In this document: in pieces, positions 11,187-37,917 of the stretch | How positions within the stretch are numbered: the first letter of the stretch is position 1 | Layout of the letters: every line of letters starts with the position of its first letter | Origin: Natrinema longum | GTDB lineage: Archaea; Halobacteriota; Halobacteria; Halobacteriales; Natrialbaceae | Reading direction: 5' to 3' | NCBI RefSeq assembly: GCF_017352095.1 | Contig: NZ_CP071463.1 | Coordinates: 3,100,001-3,164,000, forward strand | DNA: 64,000 bases | Made by a program: the position numbers and the translations under genes | Notes under the pieces: model-generated | Databases searched by the model: none | The model's input: only the letters and a program-made list of their open reading frames with translations | What the model was told of the DNA's origin: nothing

Positions 11187-12113
11187 TTACGATTCGGGGC
11201 TCGAGTTCACACGTCGATCGGGGCCCCCATCGTTTGGCTCCGTCAGTTCTCGCTGATAGATTCGGAGTCGGGCCTCGCGGACGGCGAAGGCCGACTGGAG
11301 GGTCGGCGGTATCGTCTCGGCCTTTCCGATGACGAGGTAGCCGTCCGTCCGGAGGGACCTGGCGATCGTCTCGAGCATCGGCTCTTTGTACGCGTTGTCG
11401 ATGTAAATAAACAGGTTCCGACAGATGACGAGATCGAACCCGGATTTGGGCTCGTCGTTGATCAGGTCGTGGCGCTGGAAGCGAACGTTTCGCTGGACGT
11501 GATCGCTGATCCGGTAGGTTCGATCGTCGACGTCGACGTACTGGCGGTAGTCGTCGAGAAAGGAGAGTTGGTCGTCGAGATCGATCGTTCGGGATTCCTC
11601 GTAGACGCCCGCTCGGGCGGTCTCGAGTGCTGGTGTACTGATGTCGGTTCCGAGAACGTAGACGTTCGATTCGTCGATCTCGGGGTCGTCGTGGGCGAGC
11701 ATGGCCAGCGAATACGGTTCCCGTCCGTCGGCACACGCGGCGCTCCAGACGCGGACGGTGGTCGTACTCGCGGATAGCTTTCGGAGGACAGCGCGAATCC
11801 CCTCCCAGACGTCCGGGTTTCGAAAGAAGCCCGTGACGTTGATGCTCAACGCCTCGAGCAGCGCCTCCTGTTCGGTCGGATCGGACCGTAGCTTCTCCAA
11901 GTACGCCCCATAGGTTTCGCGTTGCGTCCGACGCATCCGCGAGGAGACCCGCCGGTCGAGGTAGCTATCGTTGTAGTGGCTCGTCGCGAACGACAGCTCG
12001 TCCTCGACGAACGTAAGGAGGGCCGTGAACGCCGCGTCGTCAGCAGTCGTCTCGGCACGCCTCCGATCCCCATCGGAATCGTTGTCGGCGTCGCCGGCCC
12101 CGTTGCCGATCAC
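11187..12113 (-). CDS. cheR: CheR, chemoreceptor glutamate methyltransferase
   Basis: A 308-aa SAM-dependent methyltransferase that methylates glutamates on chemoreceptors for adaptation. It has an N-terminal helical domain with the basic patch DRRVSSRMRRTQ, then a Rossmann SAM domain: VWSAACADGREPYSLAM, VLGTDIS, and FDLVICRNLFIYIDN, typical of CheR. GTG start overlapping the cheD stop by 4 nt (GTGA). It lies at the end of the co-directional run cheY-cheB-cheA-cheC-cheC-cheD-cheR. Confidence 0.95.
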   Translation of the reverse strand: MIGNGAGDADNDSDGDRRRAETTADDAAFTALLTFVEDELSFATSHYNDSYLDRRVSSRMRRTQRETYGAYLEKLRSDPTEQEALLEALSINVTGFFRNPDVWEGIRAVLRKLSASTTTVRVWSAACADGREPYSLAMLAHDDPEIDESNVYVLGTDISTPALETARAGVYEESRTIDLDDQLSFLDDYRQYVDVDDRTYRISDHVQRNVRFQRHDLINDEPKSGFDLVICRNLFIYIDNAYKEPMLETIARSLRTDGYLVIGKAETIPPTLQSAFAVREARLRIYQRELTEPNDGGPDRRVNSSPES

Positions 12114-12625
12114 AACTCCGTCACTCCGTTGGTGCCGTCGGAGGTCTTCACGACGAGCGTCCCCGTTCCGGGCGTGAACTCCACGGTCCGGCCGTACTCA
12201 CCGCCGACGTCCTCGGCCTCGAGTGGCACCCCGAGTTTCTCGAGTTCCGTCTTTGCGGCGGCGATGTTTCGCTTCCCGACACCATCACCGAAGCTCTCGA
12301 ATTCGAACATGTCGCTGCCGCCGGCGATCTTCGCCTCGACGGCAGTGTAGTTAGCTCCCTGTTCGACCATTCGGCGTAGCAACGCCCTGATCGCCGTGTC
12401 GGCGTACTTGCCGGGTTTCCGGTCGCTGTTATCGGCGGCGTCGCCGTCGGGAAGCATCACGTGTGCCAACCCGCCGATTTCGGCGTTCGGATCGTAGAGT
12501 GCGATGGCGAGACACGAGCCGAGCCCGTAGGACTTGAGCGTGTCGTCGCCGTCGCTGACGACCAGTTCGGAGATTCCGACCTGGACCGGCGTCGGTGCCC
12601 CCGGTTCGGTGCCGTAGGTTTTCAT
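12110..12625 (-). CDS. cheD: CheD, chemoreceptor glutamine deamidase
   Basis: A 171-aa protein with the CheD signature: LKSYGLGSCLAIALYDP contains the catalytic Cys in GSC, and GGLAHVMLPDGD supplies the His. CheD deamidates receptor glutamines and in archaea and Bacillus interacts with CheC. It overlaps the upstream CheC gene and the downstream cheR gene by 4 nt each, so the three are translationally coupled. Confidence 0.95.
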   Translation of the reverse strand: MKTYGTEPGAPTPVQVGISELVVSDGDDTLKSYGLGSCLAIALYDPNAEIGGLAHVMLPDGDAADNSDRKPGKYADTAIRALLRRMVEQGANYTAVEAKIAGGSDMFEFESFGDGVGKRNIAAAKTELEKLGVPLEAEDVGGEYGRTVEFTPGTGTLVVKTSDGTNGVTEL

Positions 12626-32340: not shown

Positions 32341-32381
32341 GCTAGATATATGTGGAACGGTATCGTATCTCAAGATGGCTC

Positions 32382-33428
32382 ATGGCAGATTTTGACCTCG
32401 ACAGTGCGGACGGCCGGCGAGAGGCGTTGCGCCGGATGGTAACCATCCGGGCGTTCGACGAGGAGGCAGGTGATCGGTTCGCTGACGGCGAAATACCGGG
32501 GTTCGTCCACCTCTATATCGGGGAGGAGGCGGTCGGCGTCGGTGCCTGTGCGTCGCTCGACTCCGACGACTACATCGCGAGCACGCATCGCGGTCACGGC
32601 CACTGTATCGCGAAGGGGCTGGACCCGAAATACATGATGGCAGAGCTCTACGGCAAGGCCGAGGGCTACTGCAACGGCAAGGGTGGTTCGATGCACATCG
32701 CCGACGTCGACGCCGGGATGCTCGGCGCGAACGGCATCGTCGGTGCCGGGCCGCCGCTGGCGACCGGTGCGGCCCTGTCGATCGACTATCAGGACCGCGA
32801 TCAGGTCGCGGTCGGCTTCCTCGGTGACGGGGCCGTCGCCCAGGGGCAGGTCCACGAAGCGATCAACCTCGCTTCGACCTGGGACCTGCCGGCGATCTTC
32901 GTCGTCGAGAACAACCACTACGGGGAGGGAACCCCGGTCGAGAAACAACACAACCTCGAGAACCTGAGCGACACGGCACAGGCCTACGACATCCCCGGCG
33001 TGACCGTCGACGGCATGGACATCACTGCCGTCGCGGAGGCAGTCGCTGAGGCCCGAGAACGGGCCCGTGCCGGCGACGGGCCGACGATGGTCGAGGCCCA
33101 GACGTACCGCTACCGCGGTCACTACGAGGGCGACGAGGAACCCTACCGCGACGAGGACGAGATCGAACGCTGGAAGGACCGCGATCCGATCGAATCGTTC
33201 AAAGATCGACTGATCGAGCGTGGCGAGCTAACCGACGAGGAGTTCGACGAACTCCGATCCGACGCCGAGGCGACGATCGAAAACGCCGTCGAGTACGCAC
33301 AGGAGACGGACTCGCCGGACCCGACCGCGGCCTACGAGGACGTGTTCGCCGACCGGCCGCCGGAGCTCGACCGCTTTGCGAACGTCGCGCGTACCGACGG
33401 CGGAGCGAACGGAGGTGACCACCGATGA
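32382..33428 (+). CDS. 2-oxoacid dehydrogenase E1 alpha subunit
   Basis: A 348-aa thiamine-diphosphate enzyme subunit that decarboxylates a 2-oxoacid or acetoin. The TPP motif starts with GDG at 148-150 (GDGAVAQGQVHEAINLA). FVHLYIGEEAVGVG, STHRGHGHCIAKG and YRYRGHYEGDEEPYR also match the AcoA/PdhA family. ATG 32382 begins MADFDLD; an upstream in-frame start at 32352 is less likely. The stop overlaps the next start by 4 nt. With AcoX downstream, acetoin dehydrogenase is plausible, but branched-chain or pyruvate substrates cannot be excluded. Confidence 0.92.
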   Translation: MADFDLDSADGRREALRRMVTIRAFDEEAGDRFADGEIPGFVHLYIGEEAVGVGACASLDSDDYIASTHRGHGHCIAKGLDPKYMMAELYGKAEGYCNGKGGSMHIADVDAGMLGANGIVGAGPPLATGAALSIDYQDRDQVAVGFLGDGAVAQGQVHEAINLASTWDLPAIFVVENNHYGEGTPVEKQHNLENLSDTAQAYDIPGVTVDGMDITAVAEAVAEARERARAGDGPTMVEAQTYRYRGHYEGDEEPYRDEDEIERWKDRDPIESFKDRLIERGELTDEEFDELRSDAEATIENAVEYAQETDSPDPTAAYEDVFADRPPELDRFANVARTDGGANGGDHR

Positions 33429-34426
33429 CGGCACAGGCAGAACTCGAACTCGAGACCGAGACGATGACCGTACGGGAGGCGATCCGCCAGGCGCTCCGCG
33501 AAGAACTCCAGCGCGACGAGGACGTCTACCTGATGGGCGAAGACGTCGGTCTCTTCGGCGGCGTCCTCGAGGTGACCAGCGGCCTCTTCGAGGAGTTCGG
33601 CGAGGAACGGGTCCGGGACACGCCGATCAGCGAGGCCGGCTTCATGGGCGCGGCGACCGGCGCGGCGGCGACCGGCACGCGGCCGGTCGTCGAACTCATG
33701 TTCTCGGACTTCGCGGGCGTCGCGATGGAACAGATCATGAATCAGATGGCGAAGATGCACTACATGTTCGGCGGGAAGGCCGAACTGCCGGTCACCGTCC
33801 GGACCACCGAGGGCGGCGGGATGGGCGCTGCCAGCCAGCACTCGGGGACGGTCCACACCTGGATCGCACACTTCCCGGGGCTGAAGGCCGTTGCGCCGGG
33901 AACCGCCGCGAGCGCCAAGGGGCTGACGAAGGCGGCCATCCGGTCTGACGACCCCGTGTTCGTCTTCGAGAACAAGATGATCTACGAGCAGTCGGGCGAA
34001 GTCCCGACCGACGAGGACTTCACGGTCCCGATCGGCGAGGCGGCCGTCGAGCGTGAGGGCGATGATGTCACCGTCGTCGCTACCCAGCGACTCGTCGGCG
34101 AGTCCCTCGGCGTAGCCGACTCGCTCGAGGGGGACGTCAGCGTCGAGGTCATCGACCCGCGCTCGCTGTACCCGCTCGATACCGAGACGATCGTCGAGAG
34201 CGTCGAGAAGACGGGTCGGCTGGTCGTCGCCGACGAGAGCCCGCTCTCGTATGGCACCCACGCGGAGATCGTCGCACGCGTCCAGGAGGAGGCGTTCTTC
34301 AGCCTCGACGCGCCGATCCAGCGGGTCGGCACGCCGGACACGCACATTCCGTTTAGTCCGCCACTCGAGCAGGAGGTCCTGCCCGACGACGACGACGTCA
34401 GAGCCGCGATCGAGCGGATCGCATAG
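33425..34426 (+). CDS. 2-oxoacid dehydrogenase E1 beta subunit
   Basis: A 333-aa partner of the E1 alpha gene. It has the N-terminal pyrimidine-binding domain (VREAIRQALREELQRDEDVYLMGEDVG, with the catalytic Glu) and the C-terminal transketolase domain (GDDVTVVATQRLVGESLGVA; VEVIDPRSLYPLDTETIVESV). Translationally coupled to E1 alpha by ATGA. Belongs to the AcoB/PdhB family. Confidence 0.93.
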   Translation: MTAQAELELETETMTVREAIRQALREELQRDEDVYLMGEDVGLFGGVLEVTSGLFEEFGEERVRDTPISEAGFMGAATGAAATGTRPVVELMFSDFAGVAMEQIMNQMAKMHYMFGGKAELPVTVRTTEGGGMGAASQHSGTVHTWIAHFPGLKAVAPGTAASAKGLTKAAIRSDDPVFVFENKMIYEQSGEVPTDEDFTVPIGEAAVEREGDDVTVVATQRLVGESLGVADSLEGDVSVEVIDPRSLYPLDTETIVESVEKTGRLVVADESPLSYGTHAEIVARVQEEAFFSLDAPIQRVGTPDTHIPFSPPLEQEVLPDDDDVRAAIERIA

Positions 34427-34438
34427 CGGGGTCACCAC

Positions 34439-35452
34439 GTGGCGACTATCGGACTGCTCGTCAATCCCGCTGCAGGCCGCGACATCCGCCGGCTCACCGG
34501 CGGCGCGAGCGTCGTCGACAACTACGCGAAGCGCCGGGTCGCCGAGTGCGTCTGTGACGGGCTGACCGTCGCGGGCGAGCCCCTCGAGGTCTCGATCATG
34601 CCCGACCGGACGGGAATCGCCGACCACGCGGTCACGGAGGCTCCCGCTGACATCGAGGCAACGAGGCTCGAGATACCGATCGAGGAGAGTGCGAAAGACA
34701 CCCGTCGAGCGGCGGCCCGATTTCGGGACGCGGCTGATGTCGCTGTCGTCCTCGGCGGCGACGGGACGACCTGCGACGCCGCGCTCGAACTCGGCGACGT
34801 CCCGCTGGTCGCGGTCTCGACGGGGACGAACAACGTCGTCCCGTCGGCCGTCGACGGCACCGTCGCGGGTGCGGCGGCAGCGCTCATCGCGACCGGGACG
34901 GTCCCGGCCGAAACGGTGACCACGCGACACGGGATGGTCGAGGCGCGCGCCGAGACGCCGACCGGCGAGCGACGGCTGACGGGGCTCGCGGCCGTCGAGG
35001 TCTCCTCGCGGTCGTTCATCGGGACCCGTGCGCTGCTCGACCCGACCGATCTCCGCGGCGGGGTCGTTTCGCAGGCGCATCCTGGCGACATCGGGCTGCC
35101 GGCCGTCGCAGGCAGCCTCGAGCCGCTTGCGCCCGCCGAGCCCGGTGGCGTCGCCGTTCGCCTCGCCGAGCCGGCAGACGCGCCCCGATCCGTCCGCGCG
35201 ATCGTCGCGCCGGGGGTCACGGCGACGATCGGTGTCACGTCGTGCGACCGGCTCGAGCCGGGCGAGTCCGTCTCGTTCGACGTCCCCGACGGGGTCGTCG
35301 GTGCCGACGGCGAGCGCGAACTCGAACTCACGGACGCGACGGTCGAGTTGACGCCGATCCCGGAGGGCCCGCGACTCGTCGATGTCGACGCGACCCTCGA
35401 GGCGGGCGCACGGGTCGGCGGCTTCGAGGCTGCCGGGATCGACGAGCGCTAG
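34439..35452 (+). CDS. acoX: AcoX-like NAD-kinase-fold protein
   Basis: A 337-aa protein. IGLLVNPAAGRDIRRL starts the ATP-NAD kinase fold and VVLGGDGTTCDAAL is the GGDGT motif; STGTNNVVPSAVDGT is the second motif of AcoX-type proteins. AcoX genes accompany acetoin dehydrogenase genes in bacteria; its reaction is not settled. GTG 34439 follows the E1 beta stop by 12 nt, so it is in the same operon. Supports an acetoin-type role for the E1 pair. Confidence 0.85.
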   Translation: MATIGLLVNPAAGRDIRRLTGGASVVDNYAKRRVAECVCDGLTVAGEPLEVSIMPDRTGIADHAVTEAPADIEATRLEIPIEESAKDTRRAAARFRDAADVAVVLGGDGTTCDAALELGDVPLVAVSTGTNNVVPSAVDGTVAGAAAALIATGTVPAETVTTRHGMVEARAETPTGERRLTGLAAVEVSSRSFIGTRALLDPTDLRGGVVSQAHPGDIGLPAVAGSLEPLAPAEPGGVAVRLAEPADAPRSVRAIVAPGVTATIGVTSCDRLEPGESVSFDVPDGVVGADGERELELTDATVELTPIPEGPRLVDVDATLEAGARVGGFEAAGIDER

Positions 35453-35519: not shown

Positions 35520-36029
35520 ATGGTGAACGATACCATTCCACAAGTAGACGTCGAGATTCCGGAGTTGTCTCAGGTCGCGTTCGTCGTCGAGGATATCGAC
35601 GACGGGATGGATCGGTTCGGATCGATCCTCGGGGTCGGCCCGTGGGAGGTGTACCGGTTCGAGCCGCCGACGCTCACCGACCGGACCTACCGCGGCGAGT
35701 CCCACGAGTATTCGATGGTGCTCGCGCTCACCCAACTCGGCGAGACGATGATCGAGCTGATCGAACCCCTCGAGGGGCCGAGCATCTATACGGCCCACCT
35801 CGAGGACCACGGCGAAGGGCTCCACCACGTCGCCTGTTTCGCCTTCGACGATCCCCACGCCGTCGTCGAGGAGTTCGAAGACGCCGGACTGCCGGTCATC
35901 CAGAGCGGCAACTACGGCGGCACCGAGTTCTGGTACTTCGATACCGCCGACGAACTCAACGGCGCGATCTTCGAGACCGCGGCGAACGTCGACGCGATGC
36001 CGGGACCGGACCGGACGTACCCGGAGTAA
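35520..36029 (+). CDS. VOC-family protein (methylmalonyl-CoA epimerase/glyoxalase-like)
   Basis: A 169-aa vicinal-oxygen-chelate protein. LSQVAFVVEDIDDGMDRFGSILG opens the fold, and GLHHVACFAFDDPHAVV and ELNGAIFE give a His and Glu at the positions used for metal binding in the family. Lies 67 nt after acoX on the same strand, perhaps in the same transcript. It might act on an intermediate or by-product of the oxoacid pathway; that is inference. Confidence 0.82.
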   Translation: MVNDTIPQVDVEIPELSQVAFVVEDIDDGMDRFGSILGVGPWEVYRFEPPTLTDRTYRGESHEYSMVLALTQLGETMIELIEPLEGPSIYTAHLEDHGEGLHHVACFAFDDPHAVVEEFEDAGLPVIQSGNYGGTEFWYFDTADELNGAIFETAANVDAMPGPDRTYPE

Positions 36030-36059: not shown

Positions 36060-37886
36060 TCAGAGCCGCTCCCAGGAGAGGTCGAGTTCCAGATCCTCTC
36101 GAAGCATTTGCGAGACGTGACAGCCCCGTTCGCCGAGGTCGACGAGCCGGTCGATCGTCTCGTCGTCCGCGTCGGTTGCGAGCCGGATCGTCGCCGCGAT
36201 CTCCTCGACTGTCCCCTCTTCGGGCGTCGCGTCCACGTCGACTCGGATCTCGTCGACCGACATGTCGCGTTTGCTCGCCTGGAATCTGGTACTCAGCGAG
36301 AGACACGAGGCGAGACCGCCGAGGGCGACGTCGACCGGAGTCGGGCCGGTCTCGGTACCCCCGCTGGATTCGGGTTCGTCGTAGGCCCACTCGAAGGAGC
36401 CGGCCTCGATACGACCCCGCATCCCGTCGGCGTTCGTGGCGGTGACCGACCGGCCGGGCATCTCCGTCTCGGCTTCACCAGTGGTCCCGCGTTCGCCCGT
36501 TCGATCCGCCGCCGTGGCGACGTCCTCGGGAAGGAGCGGCCACGGATTCTCGACGTGGTCGACGAGCGTCTCGAGGACGCGGGCGGCGTCCGCGCCGTCG
36601 ACGACCCGGTGGTCGAACGTCAGATCGAAGGGAAGGTGCCGTCGCCACTCGAGGCCGTCGTCGCCGCGGGTCGGCTGCTCGGCGATGGCGTCGACGCCGA
36701 GGATGGCGACCTGTGGCGGGTTGATGATCGGATCGAACGCCTCGACGCCGAGGACGCCGAGATTGGTCACGGTGAACGTCCCGCCCTGCAGATCGTCCAT
36801 CGTGTAGTCGCCGCTCGTCGCGCGGTCGACGAGGGCTCGTCGCTCGTCGGCGAGTTCCGTCAGCGACTTGCTCTCGACGTCCGGGAGCACCGGCGCGATC
36901 AGTCCCTGTTCGATGTCGACGGCGATCCCGATGTTGTGTTCCTCCCAGAGATGGTGGACGTCGTCTTCGAACGTCGCGTTGAACGCGGGGTGGTCCGCGA
37001 GCGTCGCCGAGACGACCCGGAGGAGGACGTCCTGGACCGACACGTCGGTCTCGAGGGCTTCGTCCGCGGCGGCGGCGGCAGCTAGCAGCGCCTCGGCGTC
37101 GGCCTCGCGGTGGACGGTCACGTGGACGGCCTCGCGATAGCTCTCGCTCAAGCGGGCGGCGATCGTTTGGCGCATCCCGCTGAACGGCCGTTCGTCCGCG
37201 ACCGTCCGGCTCGTCCCACCGGTCTCGGCCGCGGCCGCCTCGACGTCGTCCTCGGTGATCGATCCCTGATAGCCAGTTCCATCGACGCTCGCGAGGTCGA
37301 CGCCGAGTTCGTCGGCACGGCTGCGCGCTCGCGGCGACGCGTCCGGCTCACCAGCGCCCGCACCCTCGCTGGCCGCTCGTTCGACGTCGTCCTCGGTGAT
37401 CGATCCCTGATAGCCGGTTCCCTCGACGGCCGCCAACTCGACGTCCAGTTCCGCCGCCCGGTCCCGTGCGCGGGGAGAGGCTCTAACGTCGCCCGTCGCC
37501 TCGCTTCCGGCACTGGCTTCGCGTCCGCTTGCGGCCGCGTCGGTCGCGCGCTCGTCCGGTTCCGGTTCGGGTTCGGCCTCGTCGGCAACTTCGACGTTGC
37601 CCTCGAGGTCAGCCGTCGCTTCGGCCTCGAGATCGTCGATGTCGACCTCGGCCGCCGCGACGATCCCGATGGGCGTCCCCGGCGGGACCGTCTCGTCGGC
37701 CTCGAGGTAGGTCCGTCGCAACACCCCGTCTTCGCGAGCCTCGACCTCCGCGATACTCTTTTCGGACTCGACTTCGGCGATCCGCTCTCCTTCGGAGATC
37801 GAGTCGCCCTCGTCGATCGCCCACTCGAGGAGCGTCCCGCGTTCCATCTCGAGCCCGAGTTTCGGCATCCGAACGATGTAACCCAT
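36060..37886 (-). CDS. E2 dihydrolipoamide acyltransferase fused to OsmC domain
   Basis: A 608-aa multi-domain protein in one uninterrupted frame. Residues 1-76 are the lipoyl domain with the lipoylated Lys43 (VESEKSIAE). An acidic hinge follows, then two nearly identical peripheral-subunit-binding domains (about 134-172 and 182-220, both ending GTGYQGSITEDDVE). The acyltransferase core is about 232-455, with the catalytic His426 in DHRVVDG. The linker 456-475 leads to an OsmC-like domain (476-608) keeping its two Cys: Cys528 in GGLASC and Cys589 in GCHVSQML. OsmC proteins reduce organic hydroperoxides with thiols and can use dihydrolipoyl groups. Convergent with the E1-acoX-VOC operon, whose E2 it most likely is. 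The start at 37886 fits a TATA box 27 nt upstream. Confidence 0.92.
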   Translation of the reverse strand: MGYIVRMPKLGLEMERGTLLEWAIDEGDSISEGERIAEVESEKSIAEVEAREDGVLRRTYLEADETVPPGTPIGIVAAAEVDIDDLEAEATADLEGNVEVADEAEPEPEPDERATDAAASGREASAGSEATGDVRASPRARDRAAELDVELAAVEGTGYQGSITEDDVERAASEGAGAGEPDASPRARSRADELGVDLASVDGTGYQGSITEDDVEAAAAETGGTSRTVADERPFSGMRQTIAARLSESYREAVHVTVHREADAEALLAAAAAADEALETDVSVQDVLLRVVSATLADHPAFNATFEDDVHHLWEEHNIGIAVDIEQGLIAPVLPDVESKSLTELADERRALVDRATSGDYTMDDLQGGTFTVTNLGVLGVEAFDPIINPPQVAILGVDAIAEQPTRGDDGLEWRRHLPFDLTFDHRVVDGADAARVLETLVDHVENPWPLLPEDVATAADRTGERGTTGEAETEMPGRSVTATNADGMRGRIEAGSFEWAYDEPESSGGTETGPTPVDVALGGLASCLSLSTRFQASKRDMSVDEIRVDVDATPEEGTVEEIAATIRLATDADDETIDRLVDLGERGCHVSQMLREDLELDLSWERL

Positions 37887-37908: not shown

Positions 37909-37917
37909 GTATAAAAG
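37909..37917 (-). promoter_or_regulatory. TATA box for the E2-OsmC gene
   Basis: On the minus strand CTTTTATAC is centred about 27 nt before ATG 37886, giving a leaderless transcript. Confidence 0.6.

What the first reader, a model, noticed from the sequence alone, without database searches (positions are those of the whole stretch)
36060..37886. E2 acyltransferase fused to an OsmC peroxide-reductase domain
One uninterrupted frame joins lipoyl, binding and catalytic E2 domains to a C-terminal OsmC domain with both cysteines. In bacteria, OsmC/Ohr can be recharged by dihydrolipoyl groups from E2 enzymes, so this fusion could couple oxoacid oxidation directly to hydroperoxide removal. I know of no described haloarchaeal enzyme with this proposed use.
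Basis: partly seen in the sequence, partly recalled or inferred. Interest (0 to 1): 0.6.

Follow-up and report, generated by a model that had tools for sequence, protein, structure and literature searches.

The report
Acetoin dehydrogenase E2 carrying OsmC domain
In salt-loving archaea, one subunit of an enzyme complex that probably breaks down acetoin carries an extra two-cysteine thiol domain at its tail; the fusion is real and widespread, but the evidence does not favour a peroxide-removing enzyme powered by the subunit's own lipoyl arm.

Summary
Window 36060-37886 (-) encodes 608 aa: lipoyl domain (K43), two E3-binding domains, intact acyltransferase core (FDHRVVDG) and a C-terminal OsmC domain with both cysteines. 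It is not an assembly artefact: the fusion recurs in about 55 haloarchaeal loci of many genera. It lies beside convergent E1alpha-E1beta-AcoX(-VOC) genes, like bacterial acoXABC, so it is most likely the E2 of an acetoin dehydrogenase.

The mechanism is only partly supported. The OsmC domain resembles YhfA rather than Ohr/OsmC: it lacks the Arg and Glu that activate the peroxidatic cysteine (Glu column 0/69). YhfA has no shown peroxidase activity, and a known esterase-OsmC fusion tested negative. A replicated natural experiment also argues against in-cis lipoyl coupling. In at least six lineages the E2 core was lost. Every protein from them (14/14) also lacks the lipoyl lysine, and every one keeps both OsmC cysteines, which are 2 of only 3 invariant positions among 69 proteins. 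In Haloterrigena, OsmC is a separate gene in the same cluster.

Best reading: a self-sufficient YhfA-type thiol module tethered to an acetoin-dehydrogenase E2. Its chemistry is untested. I found no published description of this architecture (open-access library only).

The parts
36060..37886 (-). E2-OsmC fusion gene, 608 aa, start ATG at 37886
37662..37874 (-). Lipoyl domain, residues 5-74 (PF00364); lipoyl-lysine K43 in ESEKS
   Evidence: K kept in 54 of 55 family proteins that keep the E2 core
37239..37485 (-). Two tandem peripheral-subunit (E3) binding domains, about residues 135-170 and 183-216 (PF02817)
   Evidence: two stretches
36534..37193 (-). 2-oxoacid dehydrogenase acyltransferase core, residues 232-451 (PF00198), active-site motif FDHRVVDG
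   Evidence: coordinates
36063..36461 (-). OsmC domain, YhfA-like, with linker (residues 476-608); cysteines at domain positions 53 and 114
37910..37916 (-). TATA-like box (TTTTATA) 24-30 nt upstream of ATG 37886, consistent with a leaderless transcript
   Evidence: sequence; inference
32352..33428 (+). E1 alpha subunit (AcoA-like)
   Evidence: 50% identical to the E1 alpha of the Paracoccus denitrificans aco cluster
33425..34426 (+). E1 beta subunit (AcoB-like)
34439..35452 (+). AcoX-like protein with NAD-kinase fold
35520..36029 (+). VOC / Glyoxalase_4 protein between AcoX and the convergent E2-OsmC gene
   Evidence: start approximate

Best explanation
The gene encodes the acetyltransferase (E2) of a haloarchaeal acetoin-dehydrogenase-type complex. 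E1 (E1alpha/E1beta) would cleave acetoin and load acetyl onto the lipoyl arm (K43), the E2 core passes it to CoA, and E3 bound to the tandem binding domains reoxidises the arm. The core's C-terminus carries, on an acidic linker, a YhfA-type OsmC domain. The OsmC fold forms dimers in its solved relatives. I take it to be a self-sufficient two-cysteine thiol module that cycles between dithiol and disulfide while clearing a reactive small molecule near the complex (an organic hydroperoxide or another electrophile). It would be reduced by general cell thiols or by lipoylated proteins in trans, not specifically by its own lipoyl arm. Shown: architecture, fold class, gene context, cysteine invariance, persistence without E2 or lipoyl-lysine. 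Inferred: acetoin as substrate, dimerisation, redox cycling, its substrate and its reductant.
For: Aco context: AcoX-E1alpha-E1beta beside nearly every fused gene; the same gene set in Paracoccus with annotated acetoin-dehydrogenase E2 and 2,3-butanediol dehydrogenase; an (R,R)-butanediol dehydrogenase homologue (PDB 6ie0, 7e-94) next to the fusion in L043; the Haloferax homologues HVO_0669/0668 are closest to B. subtilis AcoA/AcoB (PMC8305020). Thiol module: both Cys in 69/69 proteins, 2 of the 3 invariant columns. Self-sufficiency: at least 6 independent losses of the E2 core plus one loss of the lipoyl domain alone, OsmC kept each time; none of those proteins has the lipoyl lysine; OsmC pN/pS about 0.16-0.47 in these lineages. 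Continuing link to the aco cluster: stand-alone OsmC in Haloterrigena clusters whose E2 was replaced and a separate OsmC gene beside E1alpha in G166. YhfA-type: nearest folds 2onf (TM 0.86) and 1ml8 YhfA (TM 0.85, rmsd 2.0).
Against: No enzymatic activity is known for YhfA-type OsmC domains, so the redox chemistry is inferred from two conserved cysteines. Many aco-type E2s in other haloarchaea have no OsmC, so the module is not required for the pathway. The E2 tree does not settle whether OsmC was gained once and lost or gained more than once. Acetoin as substrate rests on gene context; in Haloferax no substrate was found for the homologous E1 (PMC8305020).
Confidence: 0.5

Rival explanations
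1. One reading: the OsmC domain is an organic-hydroperoxide reductase recharged directly by the dihydrolipoyl arm of the same E2, coupling substrate oxidation to peroxide removal.
For: Both cysteines invariant; Ohr/OsmC are lipoyl-dependent peroxidases in bacteria (PMC8945050) and Ohr has been crystallised with dihydrolipoamide (6ebg, 6ebd); the domain is fused to a lipoyl-bearing chain in 54 of 69 proteins.
Against: Ohr Glu column is V/I/P in 69/69 and the Arg column is mostly M/L; YhfA-type fold; all 14 E2-less proteins lack the lipoyl lysine but keep both Cys; the esterase-OsmC fusion has no peroxidase activity (PMC5113044).
Confidence: 0.2
2. The OsmC domain acts on another reactive product of the pathway (acetaldehyde, diacetyl) or on acyl-thiol intermediates rather than on peroxides.
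For: In related clusters the E2 instead comes with an alpha/beta hydrolase (L072, L145) or is a lipoyl-hydrolase fusion (L135), and bacterial AcoC is annotated as the acetoin-dehydrogenase acetyltransferase without this E2 core; bacterial esterase-OsmC fusions exist (PMC5113044); a VOC/glyoxalase-like gene is adjacent.
Against: No OsmC protein is known to me to do such chemistry; OsmC persists after the whole aco cluster is gone.
Confidence: 0.15
3. The domain is structural or regulatory: OsmC dimers cross-link E2 trimers or a disulfide switch controls the complex.
For: OsmC/Ohr proteins are homodimers (PMC8945050); the domain sits at the E2 C-terminus.
Against: The domain survives on its own in at least six lineages that lost the E2 core, and the two cysteines are more conserved than almost every other residue.
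Confidence: 0.14
4. Assembly artefact or accidental read-through fusion.
For: None found.
Against: Same fusion in complete and draft genomes of many genera; purifying selection across the whole protein.
Confidence: 0.01

Closest known systems
E2 of acetoin dehydrogenase (AcoC) in acoXABC clusters
   Same: Gene set AcoX, E1alpha, E1beta, E2; butanediol dehydrogenase nearby in some genomes
   Different: Bacterial AcoC matches this protein only over the lipoyl region; here a canonical 2-oxoacid_dh core, two E3-binding domains and OsmC, and the E2 gene is convergent to the others
YhfA subfamily of OsmC (E. coli YhfA, T. acidophilum Ta0195)
   Same: Fold (TM 0.85-0.86), two Cys, E near the second Cys; YhfA also lacks the Ohr Arg/Glu pair
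   Different: Fused to an E2; about 20% identity
Ohr / OsmC lipoyl-dependent peroxidases
   Same: Fold and two conserved cysteines
   Different: Activating Arg and Glu missing; lower structural match
Esterase-OsmC fusions (PMC5113044; PDB 9wo1)
   Same: C-terminal OsmC domain with two Cys on a metabolic enzyme
   Different: Partner is an alpha/beta hydrolase; no peroxidase activity was found there

Membership tests
2-oxoacid dehydrogenase E2 | Lipoyl domain with attachment lysine | tested here: met
   PF00364, ESEKS K43
2-oxoacid dehydrogenase E2 | Acyltransferase core with DHRxxDG motif | tested here: met
   PF00198 3e-67, FDHRVVDG
2-oxoacid dehydrogenase E2 | Acyltransferase activity | not testable with these tools
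   needs enzyme assay
Acetoin dehydrogenase system | AcoX-AcoA-AcoB gene set with the E2 | tested here: met
Acetoin dehydrogenase system | Activity on acetoin | not testable with these tools
   no substrate shown for the Haloferax homologue (PMC8305020)
OsmC superfamily | OsmC fold with two cysteines | tested here: met
   model pLDDT 92.7; Foldseek; 69/69 Cys
Ohr/OsmC hydroperoxide reductase | Arg and Glu partners of the peroxidatic Cys | tested here: not met
   Arg column mostly M/L, Glu column V/I/P in 69/69; sequence alignment only, no measured geometry
Ohr/OsmC hydroperoxide reductase | Lipoyl-dependent peroxidase activity | not testable with these tools
   needs assay; Lys loss in E2-less relatives argues against cis coupling
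YhfA-type OsmC | Two Cys without the Arg/Glu pair; nearest fold YhfA | tested here: met
   definition from PMC8945050

The most novel reading that the evidence does not exclude
A previously undescribed haloarchaeal protein family in which a YhfA-type OsmC domain was fused to an acetoin-dehydrogenase E2 and then repeatedly outlived it: at least six lineages independently dropped the E2 core, most of them leaving a lipoyl-like barrel without its lysine joined to OsmC. If the domain proves enzymatic, it would give the orphan YhfA subfamily a function and link carbon oxidation to thiol defence in archaea.
Probability: 0.4. Interest if true: 0.65.

Novelty: new variant of a known kind. Interest (0 to 1): 0.45.

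Why it matters
The function of YhfA-type OsmC proteins is unknown. A stable fusion to a defined metabolic enzyme, and later versions of the same domain freed from it, gives matched natural constructs (E2-OsmC, lysine-less lipoyl-OsmC, stand-alone OsmC) with which the function and reductant of the domain can be tested. It also cautions against reading 'OsmC plus lipoyl' as a lipoyl-dependent peroxidase from architecture alone.

Tried and rejected
Assembly error: rejected. Ohr-type peroxidase membership: Arg/Glu pair not met. Lipoyl-OsmC remnants in G117/G174 first looked like support for cis coupling, until the lipoyl lysine proved to be missing. Bacterial E2-OsmC fusions: none seen, but the genome scan used one narrow peptide pattern and the plasmid search is only one collection (no hit covering 80% of the query), so absence in bacteria is not proven. 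AcoX against the PDB: no match. Full-length structure model: pTM 0.44, so domain arrangement was not interpreted. Literature searches for an E2-OsmC fusion found nothing; most subscription papers are not in the library.

Full report
Observation. The frame at 36060-37886 on the minus strand encodes 608 aa without interruption. Pfam finds a lipoyl domain, two E3-binding stretches, the 2-oxoacid_dh core and an OsmC domain, each above its cut-off. K43 lies in ESEKS, the core has FDHRVVDG, and the OsmC cysteines lie in LASC and ERGCHV. The frame stays open to 38126, but ATG 37886 is preceded by TTTTATA at 24-30 nt, as expected of a leaderless haloarchaeal transcript (sequence; inference), and relatives start at the same MGYIVRMP.

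The genome. The window is part of one complete 3.59-Mb contig. A genome labelled as the same species (G255) matches the record of Natrinema ejinorense in position. The genome has three OsmC genes, a canonical E2, this E2 and a 264-aa E2-like frame.

Distribution. A search of 195 genomes of the order found full-length relatives in several families. A scan of named genomes gave 30 loci, all haloarchaeal or from haloarchaeal-type MAGs: Natrinema, Natronococcus, Natronorubrum, Halobiforma, Haloterrigena, Halogranum, Halobellus, Halorubrum, Halegenticoccus, Natribaculum and others. A profile of the OsmC domain over 392 genomes gave 58 matches of at least 98 bits, and then a gap down to 78 bits; 43 of the 58 lie in frames of 490 aa or more. 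Collecting these loci gave 72 proteins, 69 after removing duplicates of the same genome.

Gene context. Most fused genes stand opposite E1alpha-E1beta-AcoX, often with a VOC gene. The window's AcoX, E1alpha and E1beta are 33%, 50% and 45% identical to those of a Paracoccus denitrificans cluster whose next gene is an annotated acetoin-dehydrogenase E2, with a 2,3-butanediol dehydrogenase three genes after that. In L043 a neighbour matches the solved (R,R)-butanediol dehydrogenase 6ie0 at 7e-94. A review of Haloferax annotation lists HVO_0669/0668 as closest to B. subtilis AcoA/AcoB, without a proven substrate (PMC8305020). I infer an acetoin-dehydrogenase-type complex. A few fused E2s sit in other oxoacid-dehydrogenase contexts, for example with E3 (L046, L114).

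Class of the OsmC domain. NCBIfam places it nearest OsmC-related NF041052 (67.5 bits, below its cut-off of 95), far ahead of Ohr (23.7 bits). The domain model is confident (pLDDT 92.7). Its nearest solved folds by E-value are Ta0195 (TM 0.86) and E. coli YhfA 1ml8 (TM 0.85, rmsd 2.0); most Ohr and OsmC chains score about 0.7-0.8 at rmsd 3-4.6. In alignment with Ohr, E. coli OsmC and YhfA, the Ohr Glu position is V, I or P in all 69 and the Arg position is mostly M or L. These two residues drive the reactivity of the Ohr cysteine (PMC5962072). YhfA lacks both, and its function is unknown (PMC8945050); it is excepted from the peroxidases (PMC4069020). An esterase-OsmC fusion with both cysteines had no peroxidase activity (PMC5113044).

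Natural experiment. On the OsmC tree, six separate losses of the E2 core are required, all supported by starred branches, plus one case (G055) that lost the lipoyl domain but kept the core. The tree has only 133 columns, so fine branching is uncertain. The 14 E2-less proteins come in two forms. Ten have a lipoyl-like N-terminus whose lysine motif is gone (for example VASESG, VASERR, VGTAGA; in G073 and G089 only about half of the domain remains), and four from the Haloterrigena group are stand-alone OsmC. All 14 keep both cysteines, which with one proline are the only invariant positions in the whole family. OsmC pN/pS among them is about 0.16-0.47, against 0.10-0.35 between fused relatives, so the genes look constrained, though some comparisons are noisy. 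Because the set was gathered with an OsmC profile, losses of OsmC are not counted in this comparison. On the E2-core tree, the fused/unfused label needs two to four changes.

Links that remain when the fusion is absent. In Haloterrigena the E2 was replaced by one without the DHR motif, next to an alpha/beta hydrolase, yet OsmC remains as its own gene between VOC and E1alpha. In G166, whose E2 lacks OsmC, a different OsmC gene lies directly beside E1alpha; its relative G194 has a broken copy there. These cases support a link of OsmC to the aco cluster, but other aco clusters have no OsmC.

Mechanism and confidence. The E2 role is well supported; acetoin is likely. For the OsmC domain I favour an independent two-cysteine thiol module that does not need its own lipoyl arm (0.5 for the whole statement). 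A trans-lipoyl-dependent activity is not excluded.

Novelty. I found no description of this architecture in the open-access library. Every domain is known, so I rate it a new variant of a known kind.

Noticed in passing
L135:11417-13030 (G050): Lipoyl + E3-binding + alpha/beta hydrolase (Abhydrolase_3, LipP1-type) fusion in an aco-type cluster, a haloarchaeal parallel to bacterial AcoC.
   Followed up: partly
L072:5137-6660; L134:7342-9033; L135:6619-8136: E2-like proteins with lipoyl lysine and two E3-binding domains but a core in which DHRxxDG has become YDARAIG/YDSRAIG/YDTRVLG; in L072, and in the similar Haladaptatus halobius cluster L145, a separate alpha/beta hydrolase lies next to the E2.
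   Followed up: partly
L141:9982-10311 (P0004): An AhpD-like protein with CxxC...H lies between the acetoin-dehydrogenase E2 and butanediol dehydrogenase genes of Paracoccus denitrificans, another thiol protein in an aco cluster.
   Followed up: no
L054 about 11500-12500 (G194): Broken copy of a stand-alone OsmC gene beside E1alpha; intact in the related G166 (L121:11817-12230).
   Followed up: partly
G000:C1:1001143-1001874: 264-aa frame matching only the E2 catalytic domain; lipoyl or binding domains were not looked for.
   Followed up: no
L082:4796-6082: Second E2-like protein (428 aa) near E2-OsmC in Halegenticoccus soli whose lipoyl region lacks the lysine motif.
   Followed up: no
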